In this document: in pieces, positions 17,138 through 54,424 of the stretch
Layout of the letters: the number at the start of each line of letters is the position of its first letter
How positions within the stretch are numbered: the stretch's first letter is position 1
Origin: Arctopsyche grandis
Taxonomy: Eukaryota > Arthropoda > Insecta > Trichoptera > Hydropsychidae
NCBI RefSeq assembly: GCF_051622035.1
Contig: NC_135365.1
Span: 16,224,001-16,288,000, forward strand
DNA: 64,000 nt
Direction of reading: 5' to 3'
Notes under the pieces: model-generated
Seen by the model: the letters and a program-made list of their open reading frames with translations, nothing else
Databases searched by the model: none
Told to the model about the DNA's origin: nothing
Translations under genes and position numbers: made by a program

Positions 17138-17237
17138 ATGTTGAAGTTCAAGAAGATGGGGGCTGAGAAGCTGCCGGTGCTCCTCATCACGGCCAACGTC
17201 GGATCCATATTCGAGTCGGTCAGTCACAACACAACAC

Positions 17238-17278
<41 letters not shown>

Positions 17279-20200
17279 TCCCACTTGTATCAAAACCAAC
17301 AACAAATCAATTACTTAATTCAATTTGAATTTTTTTCTTCCACCTATTTATTTACTTTCATTTGTTTTGTATGCATTTTAAGTTTGTTTTAAAATGGCTC
17401 CTTTGTGACGACGGTGCATAGTCGTTTGATATTTGTATCTATTGTTAAGTTTATGTTTGCAGTGTTGTGTGTTTGTTATACTGAGCAAACAATGTTTATT
17501 GCAGAGATCAAAATATAATAATAAACGATGATGAATATCTTGGCTTTATTTTCTTTCTTTTCGTACTGTTTGTTATTAGAGTTGAAACACTCTTGATGTT
17601 TTTCTTCAACATTCTCTTACCCGACATGGATGATATTTTTATTGGAAAAATGGTGTTTGATATGTTAAAAAGACTCTTAAAACGCTAACTTCTGTTAATA
17701 TGAAAGTAAACATGATAAACACCTGCCGTTCATGTTAGTAATATACCAGGAAAAAAATACGTACACGATAAATATAAGTTTTAAAACTAATATTGTATTT
17801 ATTTTATGTTATATAATACAACTAGCGTTCAGTTAGTGTTTGAAAAAATTTCACGGAAAACACGATTTTTCACGGAAAACACGAAAAAAATTATGTTTCT
17901 ACGATTCAGTTTTCATTTTATTTCATCGTACTAAAGTTAGATAAACAACTAACAATTCAGTTGATTTGTATATATATAAAATCTAATAATACCGAAAGAG
18001 ATCTTTAATCTGATAACTCACTGTCTTCATTCTACTGTCCATTTATTTGGCAGCCATCTTGAAAAAATTCTACCCTCAAGGTATAACGATGTTTATTTTT
18101 GTATGGTTTCTAATCTAATATATAATTTTGAAAGAGACTTTGTATGTATGAAAGTTTTGTTTCGTAGAATCCGTGACGTTAAGTTTAATAAAAAAATAAA
18201 TGAATATTCAAAAAAATATAAATTAATAAAACTATTCAAATAAATTTAATAAAATGTTTACTATTAGATTATCTATGTTTACGCGGTTTATATTACAAAT
18301 ACCGAGCGAAGCCGGGTAAAACCACTAGTTACATATGTAATCTTTTGAATAGAATGTAAATAAATTCGACGTCAACCTATACAAACATTCAATGTCATAC
18401 CATCGATGTTGTATCTAATACAGTTTTTTCACTTCAAATTCAACCTTTTACAAATGAAAGACAAACTTTTGCAAATGAAATCTAACATTTTGCAAAACAA
18501 ATTCAACCTTTTGCAAATTAAATTCAAAATGCAAATGGTTGAATTTGAAGTGTAAAAACTGTATGTATAACATATACAATTTTGTATATTTATTGTTTTA
18601 ATTTCAGTTATACATAATTGTACAATCTATTGAGTATACTTATATATGTACTTATTTATGTTAGATTCTATAATAGATGTTTCTGTTAAGTTTGTAATTG
18701 TATTTTTGAATGGATTTCAGCCGTCGATTATGCTTCCAATGTGGGTGACAGAGTTTTTACAGACTATTACCAAAATGGAGCCTAAATTTATAGGCCTACA
18801 TATGCAAGAAGTTGGCGGAAAAACTTATGAAAAATCTATGCAATATGTACAAGAATTTATACAAAGACTATGCGATAGTCCAGAACTGAGGCTTTTTGAT
18901 AAAATTAGAATATATCTCGACGAAGATTACAGCTCCGCCGAAAAATTTACTGTAAGATTTTAATTATATGTAATAAAAATTTAAATTTTCGTCTGCTCGA
19001 ATTTATAATTAAACTATTTTGATAGCTTTTTAATTTTTTAATTTTAACCTCTTATACGTTTCACATGGTTTTCGTGTAAGCGGTTATTTTTGTATAATAT
19101 TAGTAATAGTATCTGGAAAATTATGACTTGTACTACATCCTGTTATTCAAATATCATCCAAACATTAATTATCACAATTTATTCAGTTCCTGGATGTTAT
19201 ATGTATATGTACATATGATTTTTATCATTATTATTGTATCATCACTGTTTTAGGCCCTCGGTAATGTTTATTTTATTCATTCCTCTTTGAATGATGTTAA
19301 AATCTGGGATTTCTTACTACAAGAATGGACTTTGGTGGAAGGAAAAGAAATCCACACCGGAAATATAGAAAAAGCACCCACAAAAGAGAAGGCAAAATTT
19401 CCACAGCATTTTTTTCCAGAAGTAAGGTTATTTGAAAAGTATTTGAATTATCATTTGCTTTTATACTGTTTTATGCTCCAATTTCAAGATTAAAAGTATG
19501 CACACGATTGATGATATAAAATTTAACTTCCAGTGTAAATGGTCCAGAAAAGGATTCATGAGAGTTCGATGGATGATTCGGAATACTGCTTTTGAACTCG
19601 TTAACATACATCTATTTCATGATGCTTCTAACATGATTGCTGCTGAAGCAACACCTTCTGTCTATTGTCGCAGTCGAAGACGCGCTCTTCGGCATACTTT
19701 ACAACATCTGCATCAAGACCCTCGTCAGCCACCATTTTTCATATTCGGAGATTTTAATTTTCGACTCGATACTGCCGGAATTGTCAAGGTATGACACGTC
19801 ACATTTTGAATTGTTCAGAAATCTTTATTGTATTACATTGAATTTCATTATAGAAACTAACTGACAACTTGAAAGCTACTAGAAGTCATTCGACCAAATC
19901 TGTTGAAAACACGAAACTTCAGTACCGCAGTCAAAAAGACGATAGGGTTATATTGACTGTCGGCAAAAAAGAATTCACTCATGTCGAACATCAGAAAGTA
20001 TTTCGTGAACCGTGGGTGAGATAATATCAATGTTAATTTCAATGAATAAATTAATATTAAGCGGGTGTAACAGTATTTAATTAGTGTTCATTATTTTAGA
20101 TGTTGAAATTTGATAAGGAGTTGGATGCTATGAAACCGCATTTATACGAGTTTCCTATTAAATTTCCTCCATCCTATCCGTTTGAAGAGAATGTTGAACT

Positions 20201-22322
20201 GCCGACCCATTACATGAAGACTAGGTTTATAAATCTTCATGTTTAATATTAGCATTATTTTTAAGTGTCGTAAATTTTTGTTTATTTACATATGTATATA
20301 TTTTTTTCTTCAGATGTCCTTCTTGGTGTGATCGTATTTTGCTTTCACAAACAGCAAGGTTAATAATCAACCATTTGGATGGACAAAAACTAATGCCAAA
20401 AGATCCAGCTGAAAGTCGACGATCTATCGTAGAACAAATGGATGGTGTTTTCAAACATGGATCTCGGTATATTTTATATTATTATAATATACAACTTATT
20501 GTTTCTTCATATTAGATACATTGAATGTATGTGTTTGATCATTGTAGAAAGTCAATTGCTGAATCCACCGATAGTGGTGGTGGAAGTCCTTCTAAAGGCA
20601 GTCATCGATCATCTGGTCAAAATAGTTCATCGGAAAGTAGTCCTGCACGTTCCTCATCTCCTATAAAGTATGGGAACATTTCGCAAATTAATCATGTATG
20701 TTTTCCAGCTTATTTTTACAGACACGTCAACAAATGAGTCGTTGATTGGATTGTCAATTTTTTTGTTGTTGTTATTGTAGAGTCCGGGTAGAAAAGTTGG
20801 TTGCACAGATTTCGACGGGCTCAGTGTGCCCGGCATTGCCCAAAGCAGGAAGAGTATTGCAGATCCGACTAATATTGTACATGCAATGAATGCAAGGTAA
20901 ATTATTTTTGCACATGTATAATTATTATTTTCGTACAAATTTTTCCTTACTACGTTTATGTATGTAATTAGGGTGAGTGAAACATATGATGGGTCTCCAA
21001 CAAAGAGGCGATTGGTTCGCAATCAATCCGAGGGTTCTCCGAAAATGGGAGAACACTTGGACATGAGAAAAATGTCAACGGATGGTGGGAACCCGTCTTT
21101 GCGAAAGAGAGTTGAATACGGAATCATCGGCGATGCCACATGTATGGGAGATCATAAGGTGAAATTCTTGTGTATTTTAAAGAACCTAATCAAACACTTT
21201 TATATGAATTTGAACAAATTTTACCATATGAATTTTTCTAATATTATACTTTTATTATAGCCGGTGTATTTGAGAATTTTACTACAAAGTGATAAAGGTA
21301 CAGTTCGTTGTTGCATGCAAGATGATTCTAATGATTACTGTTATATAGCACCACCAGAAATACATTCTGAAACTTGTTTCCGTCATCCTAGTGCCCAAAA
21401 TTTATCGAAATGTCCTTCTAAGGAATGTTTTGAGCCTTTAAGTTTAACTAGTTGTAGAAGTAGATTAGCTAGTCAAATAAGTAATGACTCTGGTTTTAAA
21501 GGACTGTTGTCAAAGGATCGACCGTCGTCTCTAGTGCGACTCGGTACTGACCCTAGTTTTAATCACATAAATGCAAACCACGAGGACGCTTCAGTAAAGA
21601 CTTTAAACAGTGATAATTTAGATAGTTCTTATATTAAATTGTTAAAATTAAACAAAAATAGTCAATCTTTACAGAAACCATTTGGCAATTCCTTATCGGA
21701 ATGTTTAAATGATAGTTTGACGTTGTCAAATGACAACATTGATCATGCGAATAATGCGTCGATACCAAACGTGCAAATTAACATTACCGGTGCCGACTAC
21801 TCGAGCTACGACGGTATCATAGTCAATCATATTGATACTCATCTGTTATATTGTCCAGTTATACCTCAAGATCCTTATACTCCCGAGAGTATAGAATCTC
21901 ACTCCCCATATCCGGAACTTTGTACGTATGAGGAAATAGAAAAGGGAAATAATGTTAAGATAAATGAAGATATCAATTCTAATATGGGTCCAAATTTAGA
22001 TTCTGTCTACACTGATGATAGTTCAGTGTTTTTTGTTAACAAATCTCAGTCTTTGGATAGATCCGAATATTTGTCGAGCAAAACCAAAAGTGTTTCTCCT
22101 AGACAGCTCAAATCTAGATTAGAAAATATTTTGAAAAAATCCGATTCCAATACGGAATCAGATAGTTGTAATGACGTTGAGTCATGCTCAATAGAAAACG
22201 AAAGATTAGGAAATAAAATAAATGACATGGATGAAAGTTTAGATAGATGTAGTAAAACTAGTGCTAAAATAAAGATTAAAGCTCGTAGTAAATGCAAATG
22301 CTTTGATTGCAAACTCTGCTAA
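17138..22322 (+). CDS. INPP5A: Type I inositol polyphosphate 5-phosphatase, long CaaX isoform
   Basis: Removes the 5-phosphate of soluble Ins(1,4,5)P3 and Ins(1,3,4,5)P4, ending the calcium signal; vertebrate INPP5A is membrane-anchored by farnesyl. Exons: 17138-17218, 18721-18951, 19254-19421, 19534-19788, 19854-20015, 20100-20224, 20314-20466, 20548-20695, 20781-20896, 20972-21158, 21261-22322; all GT..AG and phase-consistent, 895 residues. Diagnostic blocks: LLITANVGSIF near 15-25, NIHLFHDASN at 184-193, GDFNFRLD at 232-239, CPSWCDRIL at 342-350, GDHKPVYL from 539. Between the last two lie about 190 residues, against about 40 in the vertebrate enzyme as I recall it; the extra part (exons 7-10) is serine-rich. 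The long last exon adds an acidic, disordered-looking tail ending in a basic stretch and CKLC, a CaaX box. Intron 1 is 1.5 kb and holds a (CA)n tract and an element fragment. Confidence 0.9.
17236..17273. repeat. (CA)n microsatellite in intron 1 of the 5-phosphatase gene
   Basis: A CA tract starts 18 bases after the donor at 17219. Its closeness to the splice site means length changes could affect exon 1 splicing; that is inference. Confidence 0.95.
18190..18330 (-). repeat. Dispersed repeat with CCCGGCTTCGCTCGG end, reverse copy
   Basis: Inverted relative of 5027-5150: plus-strand sequence reads ACGCGGTTTATATTACAAAT, ACCGAGCGAAGCCGGGTAAA, ACCACTAGT. It lies in intron 1 of the 5-phosphatase gene, directly before the AAATTCAACC-type short repeats at 18430-18555. 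Confidence 0.65.
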
Positions 22323-24113
22323 TTTTTATTATTATTTAGTACCATTAAATTGTGCTATTTTTTTTTATTCACGTACAAGTTTATATACATATGTATGTAA
22401 GTGAATATTAATTGTATGTATTATTCAAATATGAAATACACAAGTCTGTTTTTTTATATGACTGCAAATAACGACGAAAATCGCAAATTTAAAATTAAAC
22501 AAAGTAGTAAGAATAATTTCATACATTCGTGATACATAAAAATGTTGTGTTTTTACATATTTCTAAAGCTCAATTTAATTTTAATTTTATAACAATATAT
22601 TGTTAATACTCAAGTAATATACACATTACCTTACATAATGTGTTTTGTATGTAAAGGGAAGTTCAAACAAAAAATAACGTATCATCAATTATAATTACAT
22701 ACTTTTATGTAATTGTTGAGGATTTTGTAACGATTACGCTTATATTATTCTTTTATATAATAAATAATGTTTGAATTTTATATAATAATTTTCATGAGAT
22801 TATGATGCTTAAAGTTCAATTAAAGACTAATTTCAAAGTACATTAAATGCACTTTGAATTGCACAGTTTCATGATTTTTTTTTATTATTGTTTTTACACA
22901 CAATTTAACTATCCGATTTATATGTGCATTTTATTTAACAAAAAAAGGACTTCAATATTATGTTGTAATTTACATAGTTGATATTAATATAATATCAATT
23001 TAGATTTTTTAGTTCATAGAAAAGTTAAACTAGTCAAGTCAAATAGAAGCACATGAAATAATACTCTTGAGTTACCAAACTAGGAAATTTAATAAGTTGA
23101 AACTAATCAATGTAAACGTTCTCGCATTATTCCAACAGTATCAATATTCCGTTTGTATGACTTCCAGGTCTAAATTTTGATTTTTAAATGGCTTCTTGTA
23201 TATTTTTTTTTAGTATTCTTATGTAAATTTAATTTGATGTGCAATGCTTTGACTGGTTGTTTTTATTATCATGACATTAGAGTTAAGACTAAGTTTTCAG
23301 TTAACATTATATCAGTGTGTTTGCATAAATGCATGTTTGATGTGACCGAAACTGTATATCTCGCAATATTGGAGAGTTTAGTATTTTATTTTAATTGCTC
23401 ATTTGTGAATGTCTCCATCCCAGACGTCGATACCTCATTGTGCTTAATTAATTCGAAAGTGCTTATTTTTATTTACAATTAATTATTTTCATGTCGTCTC
23501 TTATGATTTACTTTAATTTGTAATGTTTTATTCAATGTATGACCCTTTTTTTTACTTATCTGCTCGATTATTAATGTATGTACTGTACGTTTGTACAAGC
23601 GTAATACTTATAATAATTTTAATTTAGTTACTTTATTTTTTGTCCTAATCTAATGTTTTGTTAACTAGTTTTATAATAAATTCTTTTTTTTATATTTATT
23701 TTGTTTTAATTTTTATATTTGCCTTTATTTTCCACCATTATCCATGAGAAATACGGTAAGATTTTTTGAGCATGAATATAAATTATGTATTTAATTTAGT
23801 TTTAATGCTATTTTCACTCAATTTTAATAATAATATGCTGCAAATAATCGCTTATGTATAACACGTATTTTTTGTTAGTTTCAAAAATTGGAAAAATATT
23901 GAATAATTTGTAATTTACTTTGGAGTGCAATAATTCTTTTCAGGTGTTTGCCGGACCGATGCACAAGCTGATGCATTAGGATTGAATATAACTCGAGACT
24001 TAGCCGAGGTTGACATCGATAATGATTACATTTCGCCTGAAAATTGCAATAGTAGATACATACAGATAAAAGGGGAGGATCAGGCCAATCTCTTCAAGGA
24101 ATCCGACATATAA
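21261..24113 (+). CDS. INPP5A: Alternative short C-terminus of the 5-phosphatase
   Basis: Within the last exon, AAAG/GTACAG at 21297/21298 can serve as a donor, giving a 37-base exon 21261-21297 in phase 1. A 3' splice site TTTTCAG ends at 23943; the exon 23944-24113 is open in exactly the required phase for 55 codons to TAA. The joined product is 610 residues and ends FKESDI, with no CaaX box. The new tail starts VCRTDAQADALGLN and is balanced, non-repetitive sequence. Phase fit, a good acceptor and coding-like composition support a real alternative terminal exon; transcripts were not examined. The long form would end before this exon and use a polyadenylation site near 22.76 kb. Confidence 0.65.
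22323..23943 (+). other. 3' UTR of the long isoform / intron of the short isoform
   Basis: AT-rich sequence between the CKLC stop codon and the alternative terminal exon. An AATAAA-like signal near 22760 would end the long transcript. No other coding signal; a 101-codon frame at 23177-23482 looks like chance. Confidence 0.5.
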
Positions 24114-24749
24114 ACACTGAGTGTCCGATCGAAAAACGAAATTTTATAATCTGTTTTTTTTTTTTTTTTTAAAAGAGAGTGGAAGAGTATTCATTTTTCG
24201 ATGACATTTCTAATAAGCATCATCCAACCAGTTGATGTTCCGACTCTCCCAATCATTGGAAGAATAAGTATGTCACGTAACTCGCTCCATACATTTTATT
24301 ATTTTTTAAATGAAATAGATCATAAGCATACACTAGATAGGAAGCATTCAATTGTACAATTTTGAAAGCATATCGTTGTTTAATATTAATTGATTGCAAA
24401 AACAATATATTTTATTTTTCATACTTTCAAAACAAATGAATATTAAATTTAAAATTCCTCACTGAGACTTAAAATTGGTCTCAATCCATCACGGAAATAT
24501 AGAGATGGCCATGAATAATTTTATACATTCATATTTACCAAAAATTATGCAGTCATCCAGCTTCCTAAAACTGATCTTAGAAGTGAAGACTTTGGTATAG
24601 TACTTGATTTTATCGTGATGGCTTGAGTTTGATTCTAAAAATGAGTAATAATTAATTTTTGATAAAAGTTCGATTTATATTAAACGTTTGGCAAACAAAG
24701 ACTTATTTCTTCCATTCGAGTGCATTGTAGATTTTATTGATATTTAAAT
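24114..24749 (+). other. Probable 3' UTR of the short 5-phosphatase transcript
   Basis: Begins at the stop codon of the alternative terminal exon; contains a T-run and no coding signal. The position of polyadenylation is unclear. Confidence 0.35.
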
Positions 24750-24990
24750 GGTAAATGTACTACTAGTCATATGTGAACCAGTCACAGGACAACCGGTCGC
24801 TCTAGATCGGTCACACGTGATCACCCGTCACACCCTAAAACTGGTCACACCCTAAAATCGGTCAATCAGTTTTCTCGTGACCGATTTTAGGGTGTGGCCA
24901 GTTTTCTCGTGACCAGTTTTAGTGTGACGGGTGATCACGTGTGACCGATCTAGAACGACCGGTTCACATTTGACTAGTAATCACCGAACC
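24750..24990. mobile_element. Foldback element of the GGT...CACCGAACC family, 241 bases
   Basis: Ends are GGTAAATGTACTACTAGTCA and ACTAGTAATCACCGAACC, the second matching the ends of the elements at 34139, 34916, 40895 and 60126. It is flanked by ATTTAAAT on both sides (8 bases). Internally it is almost a perfect palindrome: GATCGGTCACACGTGATCAC and TCACGTGTGACCGATC, with repeated CCTAAAACTGGTCAC-type units. It can form a long hairpin if transcribed. Confidence 0.75.
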
Positions 24991-27280
24991 ATTTAAATAT
25001 CGAGTGTTATGTATTTTCAAATATGAAAGTATATTCCTGACTGTTATTAGATCAAATATCTAGAAGAATTTAGATTAAATACACATTTGATTTAAAACAT
25101 TGCATTGGTTCATTCAATTAAAACATATTATTACAAGAAGTGCATACTGAAACAGTTTTAGTTTCCCAAAATACGCAATATAAAGAAATTATGCGGAAAG
25201 CTATATAATAAGTTGTATAAATGCACTTCTTCATTGGTTTTAAAATAAGTTTTATTTATTAGCTGTTTTGAGAAAATCTTATGAATAGACTGAATCATAA
25301 GATCTATTCTATGGGCAAAGAGTGTTTGGATATAAAAAAAGTTTGGGAAACATTGCTATAACTAAAGACATGGATGCTATGGTTTTATTTATTATTACAT
25401 AATATTTTCAGACTGTATTCGTTGGGGGGGGGGGGCGGGGTGGCCTCATGTTGAGGGCTTAAATGGTCGAAGTCTTTGACCTTTAAAGCGGGCTTTAACA
25501 TAATATTTATTTGTATGTATGTTTTAATGCCAAAAATGTGTCATTGCCAAAAAAATCTCTTGATAATTATCAAAAGTTTGGTGTTGATTATAACAGTGTG
25601 CCTAATATTTGGCGTTCTACTGGCTAGCCATTATGGAAATCAAACACCAAGAAACCGTTTTAAATATTATATTAAAATGTTGTAGAGTAGATGAAAACGT
25701 TAATGTGAAGTTTGATAAAAACTTCTTCTATTGTGTGTTAGTATCGTATTATATGTATAGTTAGTGCATGTGTTTACTTTGAAATAATGATAATGACGGC
25801 AAATGATATACAATTCGTGGTGGCGTTTGACAAATTCAGGTAAGATAATAACAAAGTTTCGAGTAGTCTTAATTTGGTCGTGCTTGAGTTTGTCGAGTGC
25901 CACAACGTGTGCCGTGTGCTCTACATCTTAAAATATTTCCATATATTAAAAATCCTAAAATTGTGTAATAAATGTATAACCTTTTAAAACTAAATGTCAA
26001 GGTACATTCCTTTAAAATAATATTAGTATATAATATAATGCTATTTAATAATATTTTATGTGGTATTTGCTATTATATTCGAAGGTAACTCGCAACCAAG
26101 CTGCTAAAGTTCGGCAAAATTTAAAATTTGTTACTTTGGGGTCCAAACAATCGCAATCCGTTTATTTATTTTGTTGATTTATGTTGTGAATTTTTTGATT
26201 TACATAATAAAAATGGGTACATTTTACAGGGAAAATGAATTTATTGTTCATATTATATACATATGTACATGTATAACTTATTTATTATTTTTTTATTTAA
26301 TATTGTATAGCTGAAAAAATATTTATAAATATAAATAATCAAAGCATTGTAAACATTCCTCGGTGTGTATTTTGATATTTATTCAGTGAAGTGTTTGTGT
26401 TTGAGATTATGTTAAGAAGTCAATTTATACTTGTCAGATATGAGTTCGTCTTCAAAATTATACGTATAAATACATAGTTACGTCACGTGTATAAATTGAT
26501 TTTTTAAAGTTGCATTTTGTTTCTGTCCAATTCATAAAATTTGATTAGGTTTGAATTTGGAAATGGTCTGTATTTATTTGGTCAGTTATTTCGTTTCATT
26601 TTGTCAGAAAATAGATGATCAGGGAGTTATATTATCGGTCACTGAGTGTTTGACTATTGCTTGTCAAAAAATACTAAGTCTATTGACCGTTCATTTTTAT
26701 CTATACAGAAACACTATTATCACAAAATTTTCGTAAAAGTTACTGACCTTTTTTTTTTTAAATGACCATTTAATTTTTTGCCGTTGAGATATTTTTTTAT
26801 TATTTTCTCTATTGGAAATTTTGTATATAAAATGCTTTTCATTTTATTGAAATTGTTATTAAAAATGGAAACAGTAAAATCTTAACATGACATAATAGCT
26901 AAATTATTTTATATGGGTCCATAATATTTACAAATTATATTTACTGTTGAACGATTATTAATATTTTTAATTTTATGATAATGATGTTATTGTTTAATTT
27001 TATGATAATGATGTTATTGTTTAGTTTTAAAATTTTAACAAAAATTTGTTCCTTACATATATATATGATAATTGTCTGTCATATTTAGATTTATTTAAGT
27101 GTGTGTTGATTATAAAATTTTTAATAAATGTTAGTAATGTTAAATTATCTTATTTTTGATAAAATTTTAAATCCCCTCAAATTATAAATCACTTTTAGTC
27201 AATTCGTGTATGTATGTAAATTTTTCAGATAATTAAATAAAGTTTACACTACAGTCAGCTTCATAAGAAAAGGAACATTT
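24991..27280. other. AT-rich intergenic DNA with one repeat fragment
   Basis: Contains the reverse copy of the AAGCCCGCTTTAAAGG family at 25409-25497, including a run of 13 G (near 25425). A 34-base direct repeat TTTTATGATAATGATGTTAT near 26971-27020 occurs twice in tandem. No gene is supported. Confidence 0.4.
25409..25497 (-). repeat. Dispersed repeat (AAGCCCGCTTTAAAGG family), reverse copy
   Basis: Plus strand reads CTGTATTCGTTGG, a long G-run, GGCCTCATGTTGAGGGCTTA and CTTTGACCTTTAAAGCGGGCTT, the complement of 5173-5260. The G-run is a possible G-quadruplex and a likely sequencing-length hotspot. Confidence 0.7.
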
Positions 27281-35860: not shown

Positions 35861-36230
35861 CACTTTATTTACACAGGTGGAACGCGATAATTTTTCCCCT
35901 TTTACGCCGCTCCCCAATGAGACGCTCGATATCGACAGCCGCCGTTCCCCGATCGACGATGAATAGTTTCGGTGAAAGAGAGGGTCTGCGTCGGCGATTA
36001 ATAATGCAAATCGGCGAAATTGCGAAGCGCCACGAACGGCGAGCACGTAACGGGTCGATGTGCGAGGTGGTAAAGTTGGCAACGCTAGTGTGACGTAGCG
36101 GGGCGACCGTAGTGGCGAGTAGGAGTGCACCGGGTGCCACCCATCTCGATCGTCGTCTTGTCTCAGGAGTCGCCCGTCGTCTCGAAGGAGTCACTGAAGG
36201 AGTGTCAGTCAGCCAGTCGTCGCCGTCGCC
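35861..36230 (+). promoter_or_regulatory. CpG-rich promoter/5' UTR of Rab GDI
   Basis: CpG-rich sequence (TACGCCGC, GACGCTCGATATCGACAGCC, GGCGAGCACGTAACGGGTCG) leads directly to CGTCGCCATGG, a good start context. No TATA box and no 3' splice site that would force an upstream non-coding exon. It is the expected promoter of a constitutively expressed gene. Confidence 0.5.
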
Positions 36231-37562
36231 ATGGATGAAGAATACGACGCCATCGTGTTGGGCACCGGGCTCAAGGAGTGCATCCTCAGCGGCATGCTGT
36301 CGGTGTCGGGCAAGAAGGTGCTCCACATCGACCGCAACAAGTACTACGGGGGCGACTCGGCCTCCATCACTCCACTGGACGAGTTGTTCACGCGTTTCGG
36401 AGCGCCGACGCCCGACGAGACGTACGGCCGCGGCCGCGACTGGAACGTCGACCTCATCCCCAAGTTCCTCATGGCCAACGGCCTGCTCGTCAAGCTGCTC
36501 ATCCACACCGGCGTCACCCGCTACCTGGAGTTCAAATCCGTAGAGGGCAGCTACGTCTACAAGGGGGGCAAGATCTCCAAGGTGCCCGTCGACCAGAAGG
36601 AAGCCCTGGCCTCGGACCTCATGGGCGTCTTCGAGAAGCGTCGCTTCCGCAACTTCCTCATCTACGTCCAAGACGTGCAAGAAGACGACCCCAAAACGTG
36701 GAAAGACTTCGACCCCACCACGGCCAACATGCAAGCGCTCTACGACAAGTTCGGCCTGGATAAAAACACTCAAGACTTCACCGGTCACGCCCTAGCTCTC
36801 TACAGGGACGACGACTACCTCCTTCAACCGGCCCAACAGACGATTCGTCGCATCAAGTTATACTCGGACTCTTTAGCCCGCTACGGGAAATCCCCGTACC
36901 TCTATCCTATGTACGGTTTGGGAGAGTTGCCTCAGGGCTTCGCACGGCTGTCGGCCATCTACGGTGGCACTTACATGCTCGACAAGCCGATCGACGAGAT
37001 TGTCGTCGACGAGGCGGGTAAAGTCGTGGGCGTGCGGTCCGGCTCCGAGGTGGCCAGGTGCAAACAGGTGTACTGCGACCCGAGCTACGTGCCGAACAAA
37101 GTGAAAAAGCAAGGACAGGTGGTGCGGTGCATCTGCTTGTTGGATCACCCGATCGCCCAGACGAAGGACGCTCTGTCGACGCAGATCATCATTCCGCAGA
37201 AGCAAGTTGGCCGACGCTCCGATATCTACGTGTCGCTGATCTCGTACACTCATCAAGTGAGCGCCAACGGGTGGTTCATCGCGATGGTGTCGACCACCGT
37301 CGAGACGAACGATCCCGAGGCTGAGATCCAGCCCGGCATCGAACTGCTGGGATCCATCCGACAGAAGTTCATGTCCGTAGCCGATTACTTAGTTCCGACT
37401 GACAACGGACTGGACAGCCAAATTTTCATATCCGAGTCTTACGACGCGACGACTCACTTCGAAACGACCTGCTTAGACGTATTGGACATATTTAAACGTG
37501 GAACCGGAGAGGAATTCGACTTTTCAAAGATCAAACTCGAACTCGGAGAAGAGGAACAGTAA
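36231..37562 (+). CDS. Gdi: Rab GDP-dissociation inhibitor, intronless, 443 residues
   Basis: Extracts prenylated GDP-bound Rab GTPases from membranes, keeps them soluble and returns them to donor membranes. Complete frame from ATG to TAA at 37560-37562, 443 residues, the standard length. N-terminus [20 protein letters not shown] with the dinucleotide-fold-like GTGL is the first conserved region; RNKYYGG follows. [16 protein letters not shown] near 80 and [20 protein letters not shown] near 226-245 form the Rab-binding platform; CDPSYVP, then [14 protein letters not shown], and the acidic end LELGEEEQ complete the family pattern. The coding region has no intron and high third-position GC, unlike the neighbouring genes. 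There is no frameshift or internal stop, and a CpG-rich promoter precedes it, so it looks functional rather than a dead retrocopy. Confidence 0.97.
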
Positions 37563-38368: not shown

Positions 38369-41300
38369 TTATACTATTTTCAAGCAATAAACGTTATCAT
38401 CTCTACATCCGACGTAGACGAAGTTTCGATCGGCGATCGGCGATGAGAACACTTCTCCCGGCAGCCGATGCTCGGCTACGACCTCACCCGTCGCATTCAT
38501 CAAGTACATGTGTCCGTTTGTTGATGCGGACACAATCGTTGAATCGTCTCGAATGTCAGGAGTTGAATATATTTCGGACGCGTGCTTCGTTTTCCACTCG
38601 ATCGTCGGTTTTTGCATCTTCGCACAGGAGATTTTGTAAGTGTGCCGATCGTGACAGCCGAAAACCACCTCTTCGCTCTCGGCCGATGATCGCACCGAAC
38701 ATGATGAGAATATTAGTCCTTCTACATCGTCGAATATCCAAATCTGCGAAATAAATATGATATATTTAATATTGCTTAATTGTAGGATTCTAGTATGTGG
38801 TACATTCAATTAAAAATTTTATGAATACACAATATTATACATGTTATTTTCATTGCATAAATATATGTTTCCTTACAAACAAATTATCTTTGATTTGAAT
38901 CTCACTACCCCACATCCTTCACGTTTAGACGCAATTCTGCTGAAAGGATCTGAAGGATTCGATGTTAAGTCGACTTGAAATTAAACATTAAACATTCATA
39001 GATAGATCCATATAGTTATACTTACATTGTCGCCAGATTTTGAGTTAAAACAATGGATTTTACGGTTGACTTCACAGAACAAAACAAATTCGCCTCTCTT
39101 CAACAAACAAGGCTTGGCAAAAACTGGGCTTTCCACTTTATTTTTCCACAGTATAGTATGATTATCATTAGCTACTTCAACACAACTGCAAATTCCATCT
39201 AAAGTGGCGACAAATATATAACTTTCATGACAAAGAAGATCAGCTGCAATTCCTTTAGTACTAATTTTAATAGACGACATCAGCTTCCCTGTCTGAAATT
39301 GAACATGCAATACATAAACAACCTTTATGGTTTATTATAATAATATACAGTGGAAATTGATTAACATGAAATAACATTCAGTACTCGAAGAAATGATTTG
39401 ACTATATATTTTTATGATGTTTAAAGGATTTCCAATATTTTGTAGTTAAGAAACATCATCTATTAACCTCTAGCAAAGTCCATTTTTATTATTATTGTAT
39501 TTCTGTTGCTATTTGAAATAAATGCAAAATTATTTGACATGGCATACATTGTCTATCTTTAATTTAAATATGAATGTTTGTGAGATATTCAAACTAGTCA
39601 ATATTGAATTGTGCTTTGCTATTGATCCTAGATATCTTTAAAGGTATAAATACTGTTGCAAGTCTCCAACACTTGTGATGATTGTGGTTGTAACTTGTGG
39701 TAGTAACGAAGGCACTCTTACTAAGCAATTGAGAAAACCAACGTTTATTATTTATTTGCTAGTTCCTGCTCGTCCCGTAACAATTACATGATTGGTTAAT
39801 ATTATTCCTATGAGTGTATAATATACTCTCTGATGGGACTTACTCATGGAATTGTGTTTGCAACCAGTCACTAGTAATTTGTATTTTTATTTCAAGACAT
39901 GTGACTAGAATTTCAAAACTGGTAAATACATAAATATCTACATATTTGGGAATATAAGCATTGAGAAAATTAGCGTTTATATATTTTTAATTAAAGTCGC
40001 TCGTTGTGGTCCAGCATGTATATTCCTTAAATCAGAGCAATGGCATAAAAAATAAGGTTGTAACAAATCGGTGTATAGCTTAAAATTATAAAATGCAGTT
40101 ATTTAAGGCATTCTTAGTTGATTACCCGAATTTACTCCCCCCCCCCCCTCCATTAAATTCAATTAATATCATAATTGAATGTAATAAAAGAATATAAATC
40201 GTTTTTATTCTTTTTGTTTTTTATTGTTTACTTTGGTATTTTTAAAAAAAGATACAGATATTATGTAGAATGTTAGGATTTTACTATTATTCTTTTGTTT
40301 CTACTTATAAGAATCAACAAAAAATAGTTTAATTGGCGAAGTAAAACTTTAAAGCTTTAGCAGAAAATTAATTAATACAATTTATTTTTGTTATAATTAA
40401 ATTTTAGTTTATTTGAAGCACCTAAAATAGTATAAAATATTTGCAAAACATTGCTCTCAAAAATAATTCACATTCGTTAAAAATAAATAAAAACAAAAGA
40501 ATAGTTAATTGATGTGTATAAGAATTATCATTGCTTTAAATATAAGCATGGCAAGCGTAATGTTTTTAAAAATTAAAGGAATTCAATGTAAGATATCATT
40601 ACATATAAAAATTGTAAGAAATGCGTCGCAAGCACATTTTGAAAAAAACTATTTTTCTGTTTTCTTGGTTTACATTTCCATTTTTTGTAATATTACGCAA
40701 CAGACGATTTTTTTTTAAGAATACACAACATTTATATTTTTCACCCATATGGCAAAAAACGAATACTTTTTATTACAAGATTTTTAAAATCCATAGATGA
40801 ACATTCTTTTCAATCATCGTATATATGTATGTATACATATTTGTAATAAGAACAAAATCTACAAACTACAACTTGATTTTTCTCTATTGATCTCGGTAAT
40901 TGGATTATTAGTCACATCACGATCGCCCAAGACAATTTTATCATGAAAATTGCGAATACGGAATATTTGGCACTCGAGTTCTCGTTAGTAAGATGGACTT
41001 TTCGGCTGCCAGATGTTCCGTTATAGAGATTTTAGTGACTTGGGCGCGCGCTTTGTGACTAATAACTAGAGGTAGGATAGTCACAGTGCTATCCATTGTT
41101 CGGAAAACCTTTAACAATGCATTTACAACCTTTGAACAATACATGGCCCCCTCAGGCTCCGGTGACTACTAATAACACTGAGCAACAAAAAATCACGTTT
41201 TTGAGTTACCAGAGCGGAGACTAACCAATCTTTACTAAGTTTGACCCACTGAATTCGAATATGATATTGATTTTTGTTGGTGGGTGATCGTTTACGAGAT

Positions 41301-44300: not shown

Positions 44301-45952
44301 TTCAGTCTTATACAGAGATATTTTCCCATGATTATTCATCGGCAAGGCATCAACTTTAATCAAATCATCTGGCATAGAATATGCATTCAAATTCTCACTG
44401 AGATACTTCCAAAAAGAATGTTTGATATTTTCATTCGAAATGTAAAAAAGTATAAGCATACTATTCGTTTCACGCCAAAAACAAAAACATTGGTCAATGC
44501 CTTTAAATTTAAAAGCGACACTTTCAATTTCTAAAATGTTAACTTTATGACCAAATCTCTTTACTAATCTATCACTGCGGCCTTTGAAATAAATACAACC
44601 ATCAACTTCTTTTCCGAGGTCACCCGTATTCCGCCAAATCAAATTGCTTTCCTTTTTTAAAGATTTAAAGGTATGATATGAACTTTCTTCACCAACTAAG
44701 CATATTCTTGAATTACTTCCTAAAATGTGACATAAATTTTCAATGTGAATATATTTTAAACTATGCGATTCATAAATCAATAACTTTTCATACCTATGAA
44801 TATGTTTCCGACTTCATCGATGACCCGTTTATTGCTATCATTCCAAATTTGTATTGATGTTTCTGTGAGAGTATCTCCGATGCACAATCCATTTTCAGTC
44901 ATATAGTCTTCTAATCTGTTCATTCTTTTGACCGAAGCCCAACACGATACTTCAGTTATTCCATACAAATTGTAAATCTCAGTTTGATTCTGTCGGCTTT
45001 TAATTCCAAAAATATCAAAAGTCAAATGTTCTCCGCCCAAAGCTAATATTCGTAGAGGTGATGTTTTATTTAAAACGTTATCTTTTACTTCATTCATTCC
45101 GAGCATCATAAAGAGTGACGGTGTGGTCTGCCATATTGTTATATTATATTTGGAATCATTTCCTTTGCCAAATAATACTTTTGTCAGTGGCGGCGCTATC
45201 ATCAAAGCTGCTCCATTTTCAGCCGCCAAATATAATTCAATCATTGAGGGATCGAAGGTTAGCGGTGTTGAAAAATAAATTATATCACTTGGGCTCACTT
45301 TGAATATGGCTTTGAAATCATTCACATTGGAAAGAATAGAGTTATGTGACACAAAAACGTTTTTAGACACTCCTGTGGAACCTGAAGTTTTGATTAAATA
45401 AGCAAGTTCATTTTGAAACTTGGTTTCAATTTCAGTCGTTCTTTCAATGTTCTCAATCCACATATATAATTTGCAATTAAATTTAATTGTAAAATTTGAT
45501 AAATCAACACAGGAAAATTCACATAGTTTTATTTCTTTATCGATAATAAATATTTTACGGACTTTCATATCACTTATAACTTGTTTTATAGAAGTTTCAT
45601 TTAAATTCAAATCAAAAAACATGAAGCCACAATTACACTTGTGTATTCTAAAAAAAGGAAAAAAAACATTGCTTAAATTTTTGAACTGTTTTGCTTTTAT
45701 CAGTTGTGAAAAAGTTATCAAATTGTCTTACATATTTATGATTGCTGGTAGTATAACACTATGAGTAGAGAATATTCCTACTATTTCTCCTTCTTTAAAA
45801 TTAACGGAAATTTTATTATAAAGTGTTTGAGACGCTTCTTGTAATTGGTTATATGTATAAACATCATAGGAACCATTGTTGTATTTAATTATCGCATTAT
45901 TATTGTTAAAACTATTTACTGCATTTTCAAATATATCTGAATACGATATCAT
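38369..45952 (-). CDS. AASDH: AASDH-type adenylating enzyme with beta-propeller, 966 residues
   Basis: Acyl-CoA-synthetase family member 4. The vertebrate protein adenylates beta-alanine and carries it on a phosphopantetheine-type domain; its physiological role is unsettled. Minus-strand exons: 45952-45732, 45647-44794, 44719-43849, 43775-43463, 39292-39026, 38743-38369; all GT..AG and phase-consistent. Adenylation motifs: LIKTSGSTGVSKN near 158-170 (ATP-binding loop), YNLYGITEVSCWA, NTGDL near 389-393, GRSDRLVKRFGHKVN near 405-419, and NNHGKISL with the catalytic lysine near 491. LGGTSIAA near 543-550 is the carrier site with its phosphopantetheine serine at about 547. The C-terminal ~330 residues have repeating VGCYNGSFWCVS, ASYDSNLHTI, FGCHDRHTYK and VGCRDDNVYCLKIV blocks, a PQQ/WD-like propeller. 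Introns 1-3 are 73-85 bases; intron 4 is 4.2 kb and full of transposons. Somewhat shorter than human AASDH (about 1,100). Confidence 0.92.
41067..41163. mobile_element. Foldback element with ACAATGCATTTACAAC core, copy 2
   Basis: Starts AGAGGTAGGATAG and ends CCCCCTCAGGCTCC, with AAAACCTTTAACAATGCATT and TACAACCTTTGAACAAT, as in 11881-12030. The left arm is shorter than in copy 1. It lies inside the element at 40895-42082. Confidence 0.65.
41176..42069. mobile_element. Large foldback element, ends CACTGAGCAAC, 894 bases
   Basis: The two halves are near-perfect inverted repeats of over 330 bases: ends CACTGAGCAACAAAAA and TTTTGTTGCTCAGTG, then ACCAGAGCGGAGACTAACC, GACCCACTGAATTCGAATAT, TTACGAGATATGAGCG. 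Matching frames on opposite strands (MAFAVFNSKFRIVTLK and MAFAVFNSTFRIVTLK) come from the symmetry and are not genes. Flanks TAATAA and TAATCA suggest an imperfect short duplication. A second copy is at 49480-49989 and a fragment at 29370-29600. The centre (about 41540-41710) is unpaired. Confidence 0.85.
42242..42430. mobile_element. Foldback related to the MULE-like family
   Basis: GCCACGAAAATCACGAATAC and GGAATATCTGGCACTC reappear inverted as GAGTGCCAGATATTCCGTAT and TTGTGATTTTCAGGGGCACC. The words match the body of the GGTTCGG family (GCGAATACGGAATATTTGGCACTCGAG). No duplication identified. Confidence 0.55.
42468..42840 (-). mobile_element. LTR-like dispersed element, copy 2 (compact)
   Basis: Inverted relative of 6815-8206. 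On the plus strand it starts TGTAATAAGAATAGAGGGCC (after CAGAGAGA), includes CTCTATAAATACGCTACATC (TATA-like) and AAATACGACT, then GACAACAAAAGAACACCTAA and AGCCACTTCTATTAATATTA. The two segments are about 15-30 bases apart here against about 1 kb in copy 1. Confidence 0.6.
42896..43223 (+). mobile_element. Solo LTR, 328 bases
   Basis: Starts TGTAACG and ends CGCAACA (TG..CA), flanked by ATAT on both sides (42892-42895 and 43224-43227). Promoter GGGTATAAATTTGGGG at 43083-43098 is followed 65 bases on by CCAATAAACCGC, a polyadenylation signal at 43150. This order (U3, TATA, R, AATAAA, U5) is that of an LTR; a 4-base duplication fits a gypsy-type element. It lies antisense in AASDH intron 4. Confidence 0.8.
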
Positions 45953-46304
45953 ATTTTATATATATACAGTATATTTCATGAAATATTTTATTTCATTATA
46001 TTGTGCACAAAGTAACTAAAAAGGCTGAAGACTGCGTATAACCTACAACTGTCAACTTGACAGTCCAATATTTTTCTTAAATGTTGCCGTAACAACAAAA
46101 ACCACTACCAAGTATCAAAATATTAGGAACCAAAAATAGAGAGTGGATTTTGCCCTTAAGCTGTATTATTTTGCCAGCAGAGTTTCCACTTAAAATTCCA
46201 ATGAACATTTTTATTTTACTTTATAAAGATAAATATTTACTTGTCTTGTATACCTGTACAATAGTTTATAATTTAGTATCTTCAAATTCGGTATACAGTA
46301 TACT
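45953..46304. other. Upstream region of AASDH
   Basis: AT-rich; probable promoter and 5' UTR of AASDH (-), without a CpG island or clear TATA box. Nothing else seen. Confidence 0.35.
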
Positions 46305-46510
46305 CTTATTAAATTTCTGAAATAGGTTTTTGAGCTCTTTTTCCTATTATGCTTTAGATTAACATTAGAATAATATAATACTGTGATTAATAACCAAATT
46401 AAATTAAATTGTAAAATAGAAAATGATCAGTAGATCAGTAGCTATTAAAATAGATATAAGATGTATTGTGAACATAATTTCGTAATAATAAAAAGCATTT
46501 AAAAATCAAA
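46305..46510 (+). mobile_element. Non-LTR retrotransposon 3' UTR fragment, copy 1
   Basis: AGGTTTTTGAGCTC, TTAACATTAGAATAATATAA, AACCAAATTAAATTAAATTG, ATAAGATGTATTGTGAACAT and TTTCGTAATAATAAAAAGCA match, inverted, 56995-57180, which lies directly downstream of reverse transcriptase coding sequence. A shorter copy is at 59895-60025. Confidence 0.7.
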
Positions 46511-49479
46511 AAACAAATTCTGAAAAAAAATTTTTTTTTCTATCTTTATCCGCCTGAGCTACATTAAGCAATTCGTCTAGTAATAAATATATTTAAAAAT
46601 GACTAAATACACATGTGATACATTAGAATTTTTATCGATACATACTTTTCAATTCAATCAGAAAACTGAAGAAAAATTCGGATGTGACAAACCTATGACT
46701 TTATCTATGTATTTGAGGAATATAAAAAGGTCACAAAACAAAATAAGATATTGAACCGTACAGCATTATGAAATACTAATAGCTATGACAGCATTTTCGA
46801 TACAAATTGAGTGCAAATGTATGGAAACTTGCACAAGACTTTCGGCTGTCGGATTTTGTTCAAATTTTTTTTATTAATTAAAATCACTATTATTATTATA
46901 CACAGTAAATATTAAGAAGATTAAAATAATTTACTAATTTAAAAATACTACTTTTGGCTTACGGATTCTGACCAAAGCCTTATCAGCTCTAAGTTAGTAA
47001 ATAAAAAATACCAATATAAATTTTCAGCTAGATACGTTCAGAGGTGTGGACAGAGTCGTGGCTACAACATTTTTAACCTTTCTAAGAGGAAAAAATCCCA
47101 CTTCCGGTTTATAAAATTTTGTGATTTTTTTTATTTTCATTAAATTAATACAAGAATTTAACTTGAATTTTTTCGTGAAGAGCACACATGTTTAAGGAGT
47201 CGAAAAAAATAGTGGAAGAAAAATCGAACAAGAGTAAACTGCCACTTCCGGTTGACGGATGCTTACCAAATTTTATACATAACTTGGTATTAAGCTGAAA
47301 CTTCTAGATATGAAATTTCAGTTTAATTAACTAAGATGTTTTTGAGGAAAACTTAAAAAATTCTTAATTAACTGATTCTCTAGAGTAAAAGTAGTACTTC
47401 CGGTTCAGATAAAAGTATTTTAAAAATATTAAGTTATAAAATTTATAATTTCTATTTCATGTAACAAAATTTTCAGTTCGATTAAGTTAGCGGTTTGCGA
47501 GATAATTGAATTCAAAAACTTAAAAGAAAGCGGACACCTGTATAAAGGGAGGTACCATTTTTGGTTAACTTAAAAATTTACTTCGTATTGATAAGAATTT
47601 CAGTAACTAATACTAAGTTTCAGTTCGATAGGACTGACGGTGTTCAAAAAATCCCCAAAATACACAGACACAGAAACAAACCTTTTTTCTATATCATGAA
47701 TCCGTGATCAGTCAAAATCTCGAGTTCGAATTTTTGCATGATCACCAAACTTCATCTATTGTTACTACGTACATATGTAGATAAGGTAAAAATATAGCAA
47801 TTGGATTTCTTTCATCTTTTATGGACTGAGCATTTCTCTGACAAGTGCATAAACTTGGGCATAACATGTGTACATACACAGAGCCGGCTCGTGGCGTGTG
47901 CGAAGTATTTGGCACACACAGGCGCCTAAAATATTTCGAAAAATGCTATAAATTTTTCGATATATAAAAATTCTTATAAACCATCATGTTTTCGACTTAC
48001 ATGAGAATAACGATTTTAAAAATCAACAAGCTGACTGTACATACATATATGTATCAGAAATTTATCTTTATTATTTTTTATTTTAGACATGTCAAATCTA
48101 AAACTCAACAAAATTTATGATTATTATTTTATTTTTATTTTAGACAAATCAAATCTAAAACTAAACAAACAAATAAAAATATACAACTAATGACTAAATG
48201 TAAAATAAAATGGTAAAAATATCATATAATTCAATAAATAAAGTTGATAGAGATTTCCAAAGTTTTGCCAAATTCTCAAATGGCAAGTGGTCTGTGGCTG
48301 AATGTCTTATTATGATTGACGTATTTTGAAGGATCGAAAAGTGTCAAAGGTAATCCCACGAGTTTGATGATCATCAACTTGTACCGATATTTCGATATTT
48401 TCTGTTGTCGTTTCTGTTATTGTTTCCGGCTTTTTATTAAGGGAATCGGCAGCAGCGTTTGAGAAGTATCAAGAGATTTTTTTCATTTTTAAACTTCGGG
48501 TTAAACTTATATGCTGAATTCCACCGCGTTACATGAAAAAAAACGCCCTGTATGTATGTATTTGAAATACATTTCAAGATCAAAAATAAAATTATTTATT
48601 ATTTAAAAAAAATTAAAAATATTAAAAATATCTTTCTATAATTGTTATGATTATGAAAAAATATTCGTTTTAACTATTTTTACTTTATTTTTCTTTAGAG
48701 GGCGGCATTTTGAACTCTACCTAAGGGCGGCACATACATATTATAGTTTCGGGACGTCACTGTTAATAGTGAACATAATTATTTACATCGATCATGTAGT
48801 GCAAGACAACCAACAACGTTTCGAAATTTTTTTGCTGTAATAGCGAAAAGAAGAATTTTTTAAATATTTTTTATGAAAAAAAAAACATCTTAAAGCCTTA
48901 TTTCAGCACTTGTGGTCTTTTGACAGATGTGTCGATTTTGCACAACAAAGATATGAGATACACGGGGATTTTTGCGCTCTCAACCCAAAATCACCATTTT
49001 TGCACTCAAGGTCCTTTTGCATTACATGTTCGACATATGCACCATCTACATATGTACATATATACTTGTGGTTAACATTAACGTTAGTCATTTTTATTTT
49101 ATTTTTTACAAGGCTGTTATTAGCTTCACTTTGCCTATCAGTCTGACAATATTTCCTACATTCTTCTGATCGCTTTTTAAACTTGGCCATTTTACGAGGT
49201 TTGGCAGCCAATTGAGATTTCAATTGTTTCCGTTAGTTCCATGGTGAAAAATAATCGTAATAAGCACGTTTACGAATCCAAAAATGTTTTAAATTAAAAT
49301 GTCTATTGGGCTAAGTACTGTTGTCTCTAACTTTTTTTTTTACAAGTTCTTATCAATTTGAATTTCAATTATTAAATTATCGAATTGGATATATTTCAAT
49401 TAAACCATTTTTACTAATTTCCAATACGATGGAAATTTTAACTAAAGAGATTCAAGAATTTCTGAAATCTCTCTTATTG
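46511..49479. other. Gene-poor DNA with an ACTTCCGGTT-containing repeat
   Basis: Between 47030 and 47730 the words CACTTCCGGTTTATAAAA, CACTTCCGGTTGACGG and AGTACTTCCGGTTCAG recur about every 140-200 bases, with AAATTTCAGTTT/AAGTTTCAGTTCGATA between. This looks like the 3' region of an unclassified retroposon. Frames at 48903-49223 on both strands overlap and are not convincing genes. Confidence 0.4.
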
Positions 49480-49989
49480 CACTGAGCAACAAAAAAATCA
49501 CGTTTTTGAGTTACCAGAGCGGAGACTAACCAATCTTTATTAAGTTTGACCCACTGAATTCGAATAAGATAATGATTTTTGTTGATTAGTGGTTGTTTAC
49601 GAGATATGAGCGTTTAAAAAATGCGTGATTTTTACAGTTTTTTGGTGGTTTTTAACTCAAAATCTAGTATTGCTGTGCTCATATTGAGTATTATAATCAA
49701 TAATCAGAAGCTTTTTCTATTGATTACGATTTTTTATTGTTTTGAAATACTTATAATTAATTGTCTAGCGAATTTTAAAAGTCAAAAATATATATTTTTT
49801 TACGGATTTTTTCTTCGTACTATGTTGCATTTATGTATTTGGCCAGTTTTTTATTTCATCACCTTTATAAGGATTGGTTTTCTATCTCAATATTTTTTTT
49901 CTTATCCTAACGTACTAACTCTAACTACTACTACTAAATGGTAAAGATTGGTTTGTCTCCGCTCTGGTAATTTTTTTTGTTGCTCAGTG
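49480..49989. mobile_element. CACTGAGCAAC foldback, shorter copy, 510 bases
   Basis: Left arm matches 41176 onward (ACCAGAGCGGAGACTAACC, TTTACGAGATATGAGCG, AATTGTCTAGCGAATTTTAA); the right end is only GGTTTGTCTCCGCTCTGGTA and TTGTTGCTCAGTG. Most of the second arm is therefore missing. Flanks TTATTG and TTATTA suggest a short duplication. Confidence 0.8.
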
Positions 49990-50638
49990 TTATTAATCGA
50001 TGATTTTATCAATATGACATTACCAAATCTCGCATTAGTTAAATTATTAATTTAAACGGTTTTGTATTAAATATATAATAATTTAAAGGCAATTCCCATT
50101 CCCAAGTCAACTGGAAGTTTATTAAGCATTAGCTTTTATATCCAAGCGAGGGTCGCGCGATATTAAGCAAGTAGCAGAATGGTACCGAGGGTTCCCATCA
50201 AAGGGAGCACATGACACAACAAACGGGAGGGTAGCAGGTGTTGTTGCCACTGTGTGGTGGATATGAGCTAATTTTTACCCCCCAAAAGTAAATAAGCGCG
50301 ACCGTGGGTTAATAGCACTGGGTCCATTATTGCTCACCATTTCAATGCTAATATCTTCCGTGCGGTGGATTATTTATATTGAAAACATAATTCATATATC
50401 GATTCATATGCATATGACGTAAGTCGCCTGTCCTTGCTTTAATCACATTGAATATAAAAATTGCTCCCGAACATTTGTCATTTAAAATTGATCATAGTAC
50501 ATTATATTAGAACATTATATTAGATTAGAACACGGCCATGTAGGAATATTTTAAGTATGTATGTAGTATCGGAAATTGAAGAATATGGTTATCATGTATT
50601 TATAGATTCTTTTTATTTGTTCAAAAATCGGCCGCCAC

Positions 50639-51870: not shown

Positions 51871-53072
51871 GCGCCGGCCATATTCTGGTCCACGGGCTTT
51901 AGTTTGTAGACCCTTATATACTCGGGCTGAGTTGTATTGAATTAGTGTTACTAAACATATTAAATTTAAATGTACGTCGAAAGGAACAGTGTATAAAAGT
52001 GAACCGCGTTGATTGATCACTGAAACGCACGCGAAGGCATGCGCCGAATTATTAATGTGAGAGAGAATGATTTCAGGAAAGTGTTTAAAATCTGGCGCAG
52101 CTATCATTCAAATTTTTCTTACATAAATTTTCATTTGTTTCACGAATTTACATCTGCATATAGTTTGTTTACATCGAGAGGGTATAGAAGAAAAAATGGC
52201 TTCTCGTCATTGGTTAATTTTAGTCGTGGCACTTTTTATTGACACCATATCCAATAATTTGATTTTAAAAGTTTTGAATTTTTAAATTTATAAAATTAAA
52301 ATTAATTTTATATATTTTTTAAATGGTTTAATTTCAAATATTGCCTCTTCAATTTAATAAATGTGTTCATATTAAAATCGGCACATTTAAAATTTCTTTA
52401 ACGCGGTACTAATGTCGATTGAATTCCTTAGCATCATTATTATTATCATCATAATTATCAACCTTTTATTATTAACTAATGGATGAAATGCTCTTCAGGT
52501 GTTTCCAATTCCAACCAACATACATACATTACCAACCGTTATCAATATGAATTGCAAATTTTGTAATAAAAAATTAAATTACCGGAAATTTTATATAAAA
52601 AACGCGGAAAATTCGACAATTTCTATAAAAAAGTGGAAAACCTAACCGACCATTTCAGCATTTCGGTCTGCAAATACTATGATGTCTAAATCAAATTTTT
52701 TTTAGAAGCTTTTTATTAGTTTCACTGACTATGCACGTGGTGAAATATTTGTGAGCTGATTTTGACCACTTTCATTCTTCCGATCGCTTTGATATTTTAC
52801 AGACATACAAAGGCTAGCTCTAATTAAAGTCAGCAAATATCTCCGACTTAATGCTAGAAAAATTCACTAACTAAATCATCAAAATCGACTGTCAGATCGA
52901 CGCGATGACAGCTAGATCAGATAGGCCTGCTTTGTAGTTCAAAGCTAGAGAGCAAAAAAAAAAGGTTCACCATAAAAATTAAAGATGCACGGCGAAAAAT
53001 GAATAACGAACGGCGCAAAGTGGCTCCGGTATCTAGTTATAACAGTTACTTTTTCTACACTATCTCATATAC
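51871..53072. other. Intergenic DNA, no supported gene
   Basis: AT-rich. Small open frames only. Nothing recognised as RNA or complete repeat. Confidence 0.35.
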
Positions 53073-54345: not shown

Positions 54346-54424
54346 TATATTAAAGATTATAAATTTGAAACTACATTCAAATAATGGTGACGAATGAGGG
54401 TAAGTGGTCAGTTTGGTAGAAACC

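What the first reader, a model, noticed from the sequence alone, without database searches (positions are those of the whole stretch)
21261..24113. Two C-termini for the type I 5-phosphatase: one with a CaaX box, one without
Seen: the long last exon ends in CKLC, preceded by basic residues, a CaaX box whose last residue suits farnesyltransferase. A GTACAG donor 37 bases into the same exon joins, in phase, to an exon at 23944-24113 giving FKESDI instead. Known: vertebrate INPP5A is farnesylated and membrane-bound through such a box. Inference: splicing would switch the enzyme between membrane-anchored and soluble forms, tuning where Ins(1,4,5)P3 is removed.
Basis: partly seen in the sequence, partly recalled or inferred. 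Interest (0 to 1): 0.7.

Follow-up and report, generated by a model that had tools for sequence, protein, structure and literature searches.

The report
Enzyme tail switch: lipid or scaffold
One gene for the enzyme that removes the calcium-releasing messenger IP3 appears to have two alternative endings, one made to take a lipid anchor and one that looks like a plug for synapse scaffold proteins, so neurons may be able to choose where the signal is switched off.

Summary
The window carries an INPP5A (type I InsP3 5-phosphatase) gene whose last exon can be read two ways: through to a 341-residue tail ending KCKCFDCKLC (a CaaX box), or spliced at an internal donor (21297) to an in-phase exon (23944-24113) ending NLFKESDI. 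Both look coding, the distal exon with less certainty.

The interpretation needs two changes. (1) The second tail is probably not simply 'soluble': -ESDI is a type-I PDZ ligand with Glu at -3, the preference of mammalian Dlg proteins, close to the NMDA-receptor tail -IESDV. Only 1 of 2037 ORF ends in the window has that form. (2) It looks like an alternative last exon set by poly(A)-site choice. Fly 5PtaseI (orthology recalled) is in print as a strong ELAV-regulated case, with ELAV binding RNA past its cleavage site; ELAV pushes neurons to distal last exons. Best reading: lipid-anchored form in most tissues, PDZ-tethered form in neurons.

No RNA or orthologue sequence could be reached, so expression, conservation, farnesylation and PDZ binding are untested. 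New variant of a known kind.

The parts
17138..21158 (+). Shared INPP5A coding exons 1-10 (17138-17218, 18721-18951, 19254-19421, 19534-19788, 19854-20015, 20100-20224, 20314-20466, 20548-20695, 20781-20896, 20972-21158)
   Evidence: Closed in-frame gene model; Pfam PF22669 E 5.7e-13, 49.5 bits over a cut-off of 27; OCRL chain 4cmn E 1.7e-4
21261..21297 (+). Shared first 37 bases of the last exon (PVYLRILLQSDK + first base of a Gly codon)
21297..21303 (+). Internal 5' splice site AAAG|GTACAG (last exon base 21297)
   Evidence: rank 2 of 68 GTs in the exon, score 1.0 within the -5.4 to 4.0 range of the gene's ten other donors
21298..22322 (+). Proximal (composite) terminal-exon extension, 341 residues, Ser/Asn/Leu/Asp-rich, ending in the CaaX box CKLC*
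   Evidence: 0 of 1000 shuffles open; period-3 0 of 1000 against two nulls; only its own place in the genome; strict CaaX at 11 of 2037 ORF ends in the window, this one included; kinase-trained models do not call it coding
22248..22319 (+). Basic, Cys-rich last 24 residues CSKTSAKIKIKARSKCKCFDCKLC (8 K/R, 1 D/E): prenylation and possible palmitoylation segment
   Evidence: motif reading, not tested
23675..23810 (+). Candidate proximal poly(A) signal AATAAA (23675-23680) with U-rich downstream region, candidate ELAV-type site
   Evidence: in the 120 bases from 23691, T content ranks 3 and T4+ runs rank 2 among 526 AATAAA/ATTAAA sites on both strands of the window; 1 of 500 shuffles of 22323-23943 has as T-rich a 100-base stretch; no exact U5N2U3, where shuffles average 1.7 in their best 100 bases
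23944..24113 (+). Distal terminal exon (56 residues, first codon split across the junction) ending NLFKESDI*
24099..24110 (+). C-terminal ESDI: type-I PDZ ligand with Glu at -3
   Evidence: E[ST][DE][VI] end: 1 of 2037 ORF ends in the window, this one; Dlg-family preference for Glu at -3 and NR2B -IESDV from PMC3138430

Best explanation
The gene is INPP5A with two alternative last exons that swap the targeting device on an unchanged InsP3 5-phosphatase. If the middling internal donor at 21297 is passed over and cleavage occurs at a poly(A) site in 22323-23943 (AATAAA at 23675 is the best candidate), the protein gains a long tail ending in a CaaX box with nearby cysteines and basic residues, is farnesylated and sits on membranes. 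If that poly(A) site is suppressed, as ELAV does in fly neurons for 5PtaseI, transcription runs on, 21297 is spliced to 23944, and the protein ends in -KESDI, a type-I PDZ ligand of the Dlg/PSD-95 kind. InsP3 removal would then be placed on lipid membranes generally and at a PDZ scaffold in neurons. Shown here: gene, both frames, splice signals, both end motifs, the U-rich site. From print: ELAV regulation of fly 5PtaseI, lipidation of human INPP5A. Inferred: that both mRNAs exist in this species, farnesylation, PDZ binding, neuronal use.
For: Gene model and phase. Coding signals of the tails. End motifs rare among window ORF ends: 11 of 2037 strict CaaX, 1 of 2037 E[ST][DE][VI]. CKLC allowed at a2 and X by published FTase rules. 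Fly 5PtaseI in the strong ELAV poly(A)-choice class; ELAV binds the 100 nt past its cleavage site with Kd 24 nM. ELAV/Hu proteins shift fly neurons to distal last exons, on available evidence by suppressing the proximal poly(A) site (PMC8904962, passages). U-rich stretch after AATAAA 23675. Lipidation sets human INPP5A location and Ca2+ control. Mammalian Dlg-family preference for Glu at -3 (PMC3138430, passages).
Against: No transcript evidence and no orthologue sequence at all. The PDZ pattern was chosen after seeing the tail, so 1 of 2037 is not a clean P value; the loose type-I pattern occurs at 84 of 2037 ends, and PMC3138430 itself says the loose motif is no strong predictor. Lys at a1 of CKLC is a negative in the Ras-reporter data of PMC10320760. 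No exact U5N2U3 ELAV motif between 22323 and 23943, fewer than shuffles give, and U-rich sequence downstream is normal for poly(A) sites (the latter recalled). In the first 1.3 kb past the distal stop there is no AATAAA, only ATTAAA at 24442, 24679, 25074 and 25117. Kinase-trained coding models do not pick out the extension. Whether the fly gene's tails resemble these is unknown to me.
Confidence: 0.5

Rival explanations
1. Real alternative last exons: the CaaX form is membrane-bound and the FKESDI form is simply soluble; the ESDI end is chance.
For: Same coding evidence for both exons; the loose type-I pattern is common by chance (84 of 2037 ORF ends); human INPP5A that cannot be farnesylated still strongly lowers Ca2+ oscillations at the lowest agonist dose, so a soluble form could work.
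Against: The full E-S-D-I pattern is rare (1 of 2037) and matches the Dlg-family preference.
Confidence: 0.27
2. The long CaaX exon is the only coding terminal exon; the distal exon is a chance ORF or a rare splice product without function.
For: The distal exon is short; 147 of 5000 shuffles stay open, its period-3 signal alone is modest (37 of 1000) and its codon-usage score is just under the 95th percentile of open non-coding windows.
Against: 0 of 189 comparable acceptors gives an equally coding-like phase-fitting ORF; fly 5PtaseI does have regulated alternative last exons.
Confidence: 0.13
3. The distal tail is the main product and the long extension is an unspliced read-through with little use.
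For: The extension is not called coding by kinase-trained models and has no Pfam match up to E 1.
Against: 353 open codons with strong period-3, 0 of 1000 in two nulls, and a CaaX end that fits the family.
Confidence: 0.1

Closest known systems
Drosophila 5PtaseI, strong ELAV-regulated alternative last exon / poly(A)-site target (PMC11551757: abstract, passages and section 14 seen)
   Same: Same gene (orthology recalled, not tested); last-exon choice set by poly(A)-site use; ELAV-binding RNA just past the cleavage site
   Different: The parts seen give no protein tails, so whether the fly tails are CaaX and PDZ ligand is not known to me; ELAV control in this species is inferred
Human INPP5A, C408 palmitoylated and C409 (CVVQ) farnesylated (PMC12450637, abstract and passages)
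   Same: Catalytic core and a CaaX C-terminus; lipid sets where InsP3 is removed
   Different: Human CaaX follows the core almost directly (recalled sequence); here it lies 341 residues on, RCCMQ lies inside the frame near the place of the human Cys pair, and there is a second tail
Cdc42 brain-specific and ubiquitous alternative last exons (PMC6411841, passages)
   Same: Alternative last exons change the C-terminal lipid signal, with different location and function in neurons
   Different: Both Cdc42 forms are prenylated, one also palmitoylated; here lipid signal against PDZ ligand
Fly ewg and nrg, ELAV-controlled alternative last exons (PMC8904962, passages)
   Same: Proximal poly(A) site used outside neurons, bypassed in neurons
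   Different: Different genes and tails

Membership tests
INPP5A (type I InsP3 5-phosphatase) | Sequence match along the catalytic domain | tested here: met
   tblastn with recalled human INPP5A matches exons 1-7 and 10; PF22669 over its cut-off, residues 161-355
INPP5A (type I InsP3 5-phosphatase) | 5-phosphatase catalytic motifs (GDFNFRL, PSWCDRI, GDHKPV) | tested here: met
   read in the translation; the first two aligned to SHIP2 and OCRL chains; motif names recalled
INPP5A (type I InsP3 5-phosphatase) | C-terminal CaaX box | tested here: met
   CKLC* on the long form, absent on the distal form
Farnesylated CaaX protein | No D/E/K/R at a2, no K/P/R at X | tested here: met
   CKLC against the rules in PMC10320760; Lys at a1 is a Ras-reporter negative there
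Farnesylated CaaX protein | Prenyl group on the protein | not testable with these tools
   needs biochemistry
Type-I PDZ ligand of Dlg/PSD-95 type | S/T-x-I/L/V at the C-terminus with Glu at -3 | tested here: met
   -ESDI against PMC3138430
Type-I PDZ ligand of Dlg/PSD-95 type | Binds a PDZ domain | not testable with these tools
   needs a binding assay
ELAV-regulated alternative last exon | Poly(A) signal followed by U-rich sequence, upstream of a distal in-phase terminal exon | tested here: met
   AATAAA 23675, ranks 3 and 2 of 526, distal exon
ELAV-regulated alternative last exon | U5N2U3 core motif past the cleavage site | tested here: not met
   no exact U5N2U3 in 22323-23943; so it is said to work like one, not filed as an ELAV target in this species
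ELAV-regulated alternative last exon | Distal exon use depends on ELAV or neurons | not testable with these tools
   needs RNA; reported for fly 5PtaseI

The most novel reading that the evidence does not exclude
Neurons of this species, and perhaps insects generally, use an ELAV-controlled last exon to exchange the lipid anchor of the InsP3 5-phosphatase for a PDZ ligand, docking InsP3 removal onto the synaptic Dlg scaffold; the long form meanwhile carries a new CaaX box after the ancestral CC-x-Q terminus was buried by loss of its stop.
Probability: 0.3. Interest if true: 0.72.

Novelty: new variant of a known kind. Interest (0 to 1): 0.52.

Why it matters
InsP3 is a diffusible messenger, so where it is destroyed shapes local Ca2+ signals. 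A lipid-to-scaffold exchange chosen by a neuronal RNA-binding protein would give a direct, genetically testable reason why 5PtaseI is in the strong class of ELAV poly(A)-choice targets in flies, and a handle on local Ca2+ control at synapses.

Tried and rejected
Transposon or repeat origin of the extension: only its own place matched in the genome. Domain in either tail: 0 Pfam families up to E 1. Another gene copy: one match to the exon-4 peptide in the genome. Relatives elsewhere, exon-4 peptide only: 0 of 19 pattern matches confirmed in viral contigs and 0 of 183 in genome contigs. Kinase codon-usage model: negative on known INPP5A exons 2 and 4, so given little weight; its gc3 lines for the two tails were out of phase and are not used. 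A first acceptor scan had a one-base offset and was redone. Exact ELAV core motif: none. Structure prediction was not attempted, since no alignment of relatives was available. RCCMQ as the working CaaX of a shorter protein: rejected because the frame runs on past it.

Papers: 10 of 10 searches used; 13 papers opened, none in full. One search found four papers with both '5PtaseI' and 'Drosophila', one of them (PMC11551757) on its RNA processing. Two fly papers on ELAV and poly(A)-site choice do not name the gene in the main text (PMC8055025, PMC9470587). I saw no paper that describes INPP5A or 5PtaseI tails as CaaX versus PDZ ligand in the listings (15 of 23 listed; 25 of 445 listed); supplements could not be read. 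No paper with 'CKLC' was among the 12 of 1,308 listed, and 'ESDI' occurred in none of the 10 of 743 listed.

Full report
What is there. The window (C11:16224001-16288000 of a 475.7 Mb assembly) carries on its + strand an INPP5A gene. The catalytic motifs GDFNFRL, PSWCDRI and GDHKPV are present; Pfam PF22669 is over its cut-off and the best solved relatives, OCRL and SHIP2, match weakly.

The two ends. The terminal exon starts at 21261. Read through, it is open for 353 codons and ends KCKCFDCKLC, stop ending at 22322. Spliced at 21297 to 23944, it ends NLFKESDI, stop ending at 24113. The last shared residues lie after GDHKPVYLRIL, which corresponds to the end of the human catalytic domain as I recall it, so the core should be the same in both.

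Are they coding? For the extension, 0 of 1000 shuffles stay open, and its period-3 signal exceeds all 1000 shuffles and all 1000 stop-free Markov sequences. Against this, kinase-trained models do not favour its frame; they also fail on known INPP5A exons (exons 2 and 4, exon 4), so I weigh them little. For the distal exon, the position-specific coding signal is reached by 10 of 5000 shuffles and 1 of 191 overlapping open non-coding windows; the generic period-3 test is weaker, 37 of 1000, and codon usage puts it just under the 95th percentile of open non-coding windows. In 76,202 bases (both strands added) of regions taken as non-coding, of which 45001-64000 was not cleared of exons, 189 acceptors score at least as well, 7 open a phase-fitting ORF of 55 codons or more, and 0 reach its coding score.

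What the ends look like. CKLC passes the published a2 and X rules for yeast farnesyltransferase, though Lys at a1 is a negative in the Ras-reporter data of the same paper. Human INPP5A is farnesylated and palmitoylated, with consequences for membrane location and Ca2+ oscillations. ESDI fits the type-I PDZ ligand; mammalian Dlg-family proteins prefer Glu at -3, and NR2B ends IESDV. In the window, 84 of 2037 ORF ends fit the loose type-I pattern, 3 have Glu at -3 as well, and 1, this one, fits E[ST][DE][VI]. The narrow pattern was chosen after seeing the sequence.

How the choice is made. Fly 5PtaseI, which I recall to be the INPP5A orthologue, belongs to the strong class of ELAV-regulated poly(A)-site genes, classed by change in alternative last exon use; the 100-nt RNA past its cleavage site binds ELAV with Kd 24 nM. 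ELAV/Hu proteins move fly neurons to distal last exons, on available evidence by suppressing the proximal site. Here, between the long frame's stop and the distal exon, the last canonical signal (AATAAA 23675) is followed by one of the most U-rich stretches in the window (rank 3 by T content and rank 2 by T runs, of 526 signals). No exact U5N2U3 is present, fewer than shuffles give, and past the distal stop only ATTAAA signals occur up to 25400. So the layout suits the same mechanism; regulation in this species is inferred.

The alternative form is more likely scaffold-tethered than merely soluble, and the switch is likely made by 3'-end choice. I give the combined reading 0.5 and the plain 'anchored or soluble' reading 0.27.

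An unexplained point. Just past the shared core the long frame reads KGTVRCCMQDDSN. Human INPP5A ends near that place in C408-CVVQ (the residue before it is recalled). The Cys pair may be a buried ancestral terminus. Orthologues would decide.

Limits. No RNA and no insect sequences were reachable; scans of viral and prokaryote collections with the exon-4 peptide confirmed nothing, and 21 whole-genome searches did not complete.

Noticed in passing
window 21306-21320: Internal RCCMQ just past the catalytic core, near the place where human INPP5A ends in C408-CVVQ; possible buried ancestral CaaX terminus.
   Followed up: partly
window 20380-21120: Ser-rich insert of about 160 residues (end of exon 7 to exon 10) inside the catalytic domain between CPSWCDRIL and CMGDHKP, relative to recalled human INPP5A; exons 8 and 9 together are 264 nt, so frame-neutral if skipped as a pair.
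   Followed up: no
window 24739-25001: Fold-back element with long inverted arms (57 nt 89%, 45 nt 80%) past the distal exon, MITE-like.
   Followed up: partly
window 36225-37562: Intact Rab GDI reading frame without introns, 445 aa, PF00996 E 1.4e-228, GC3 0.79; it may be a retrocopy, other copies not searched for.
   Followed up: no
window 38369-39331: Minus-strand exons of an ACSF4-type beta-propeller gene (PF13570; each below the whole-protein cut-off).
   Followed up: no
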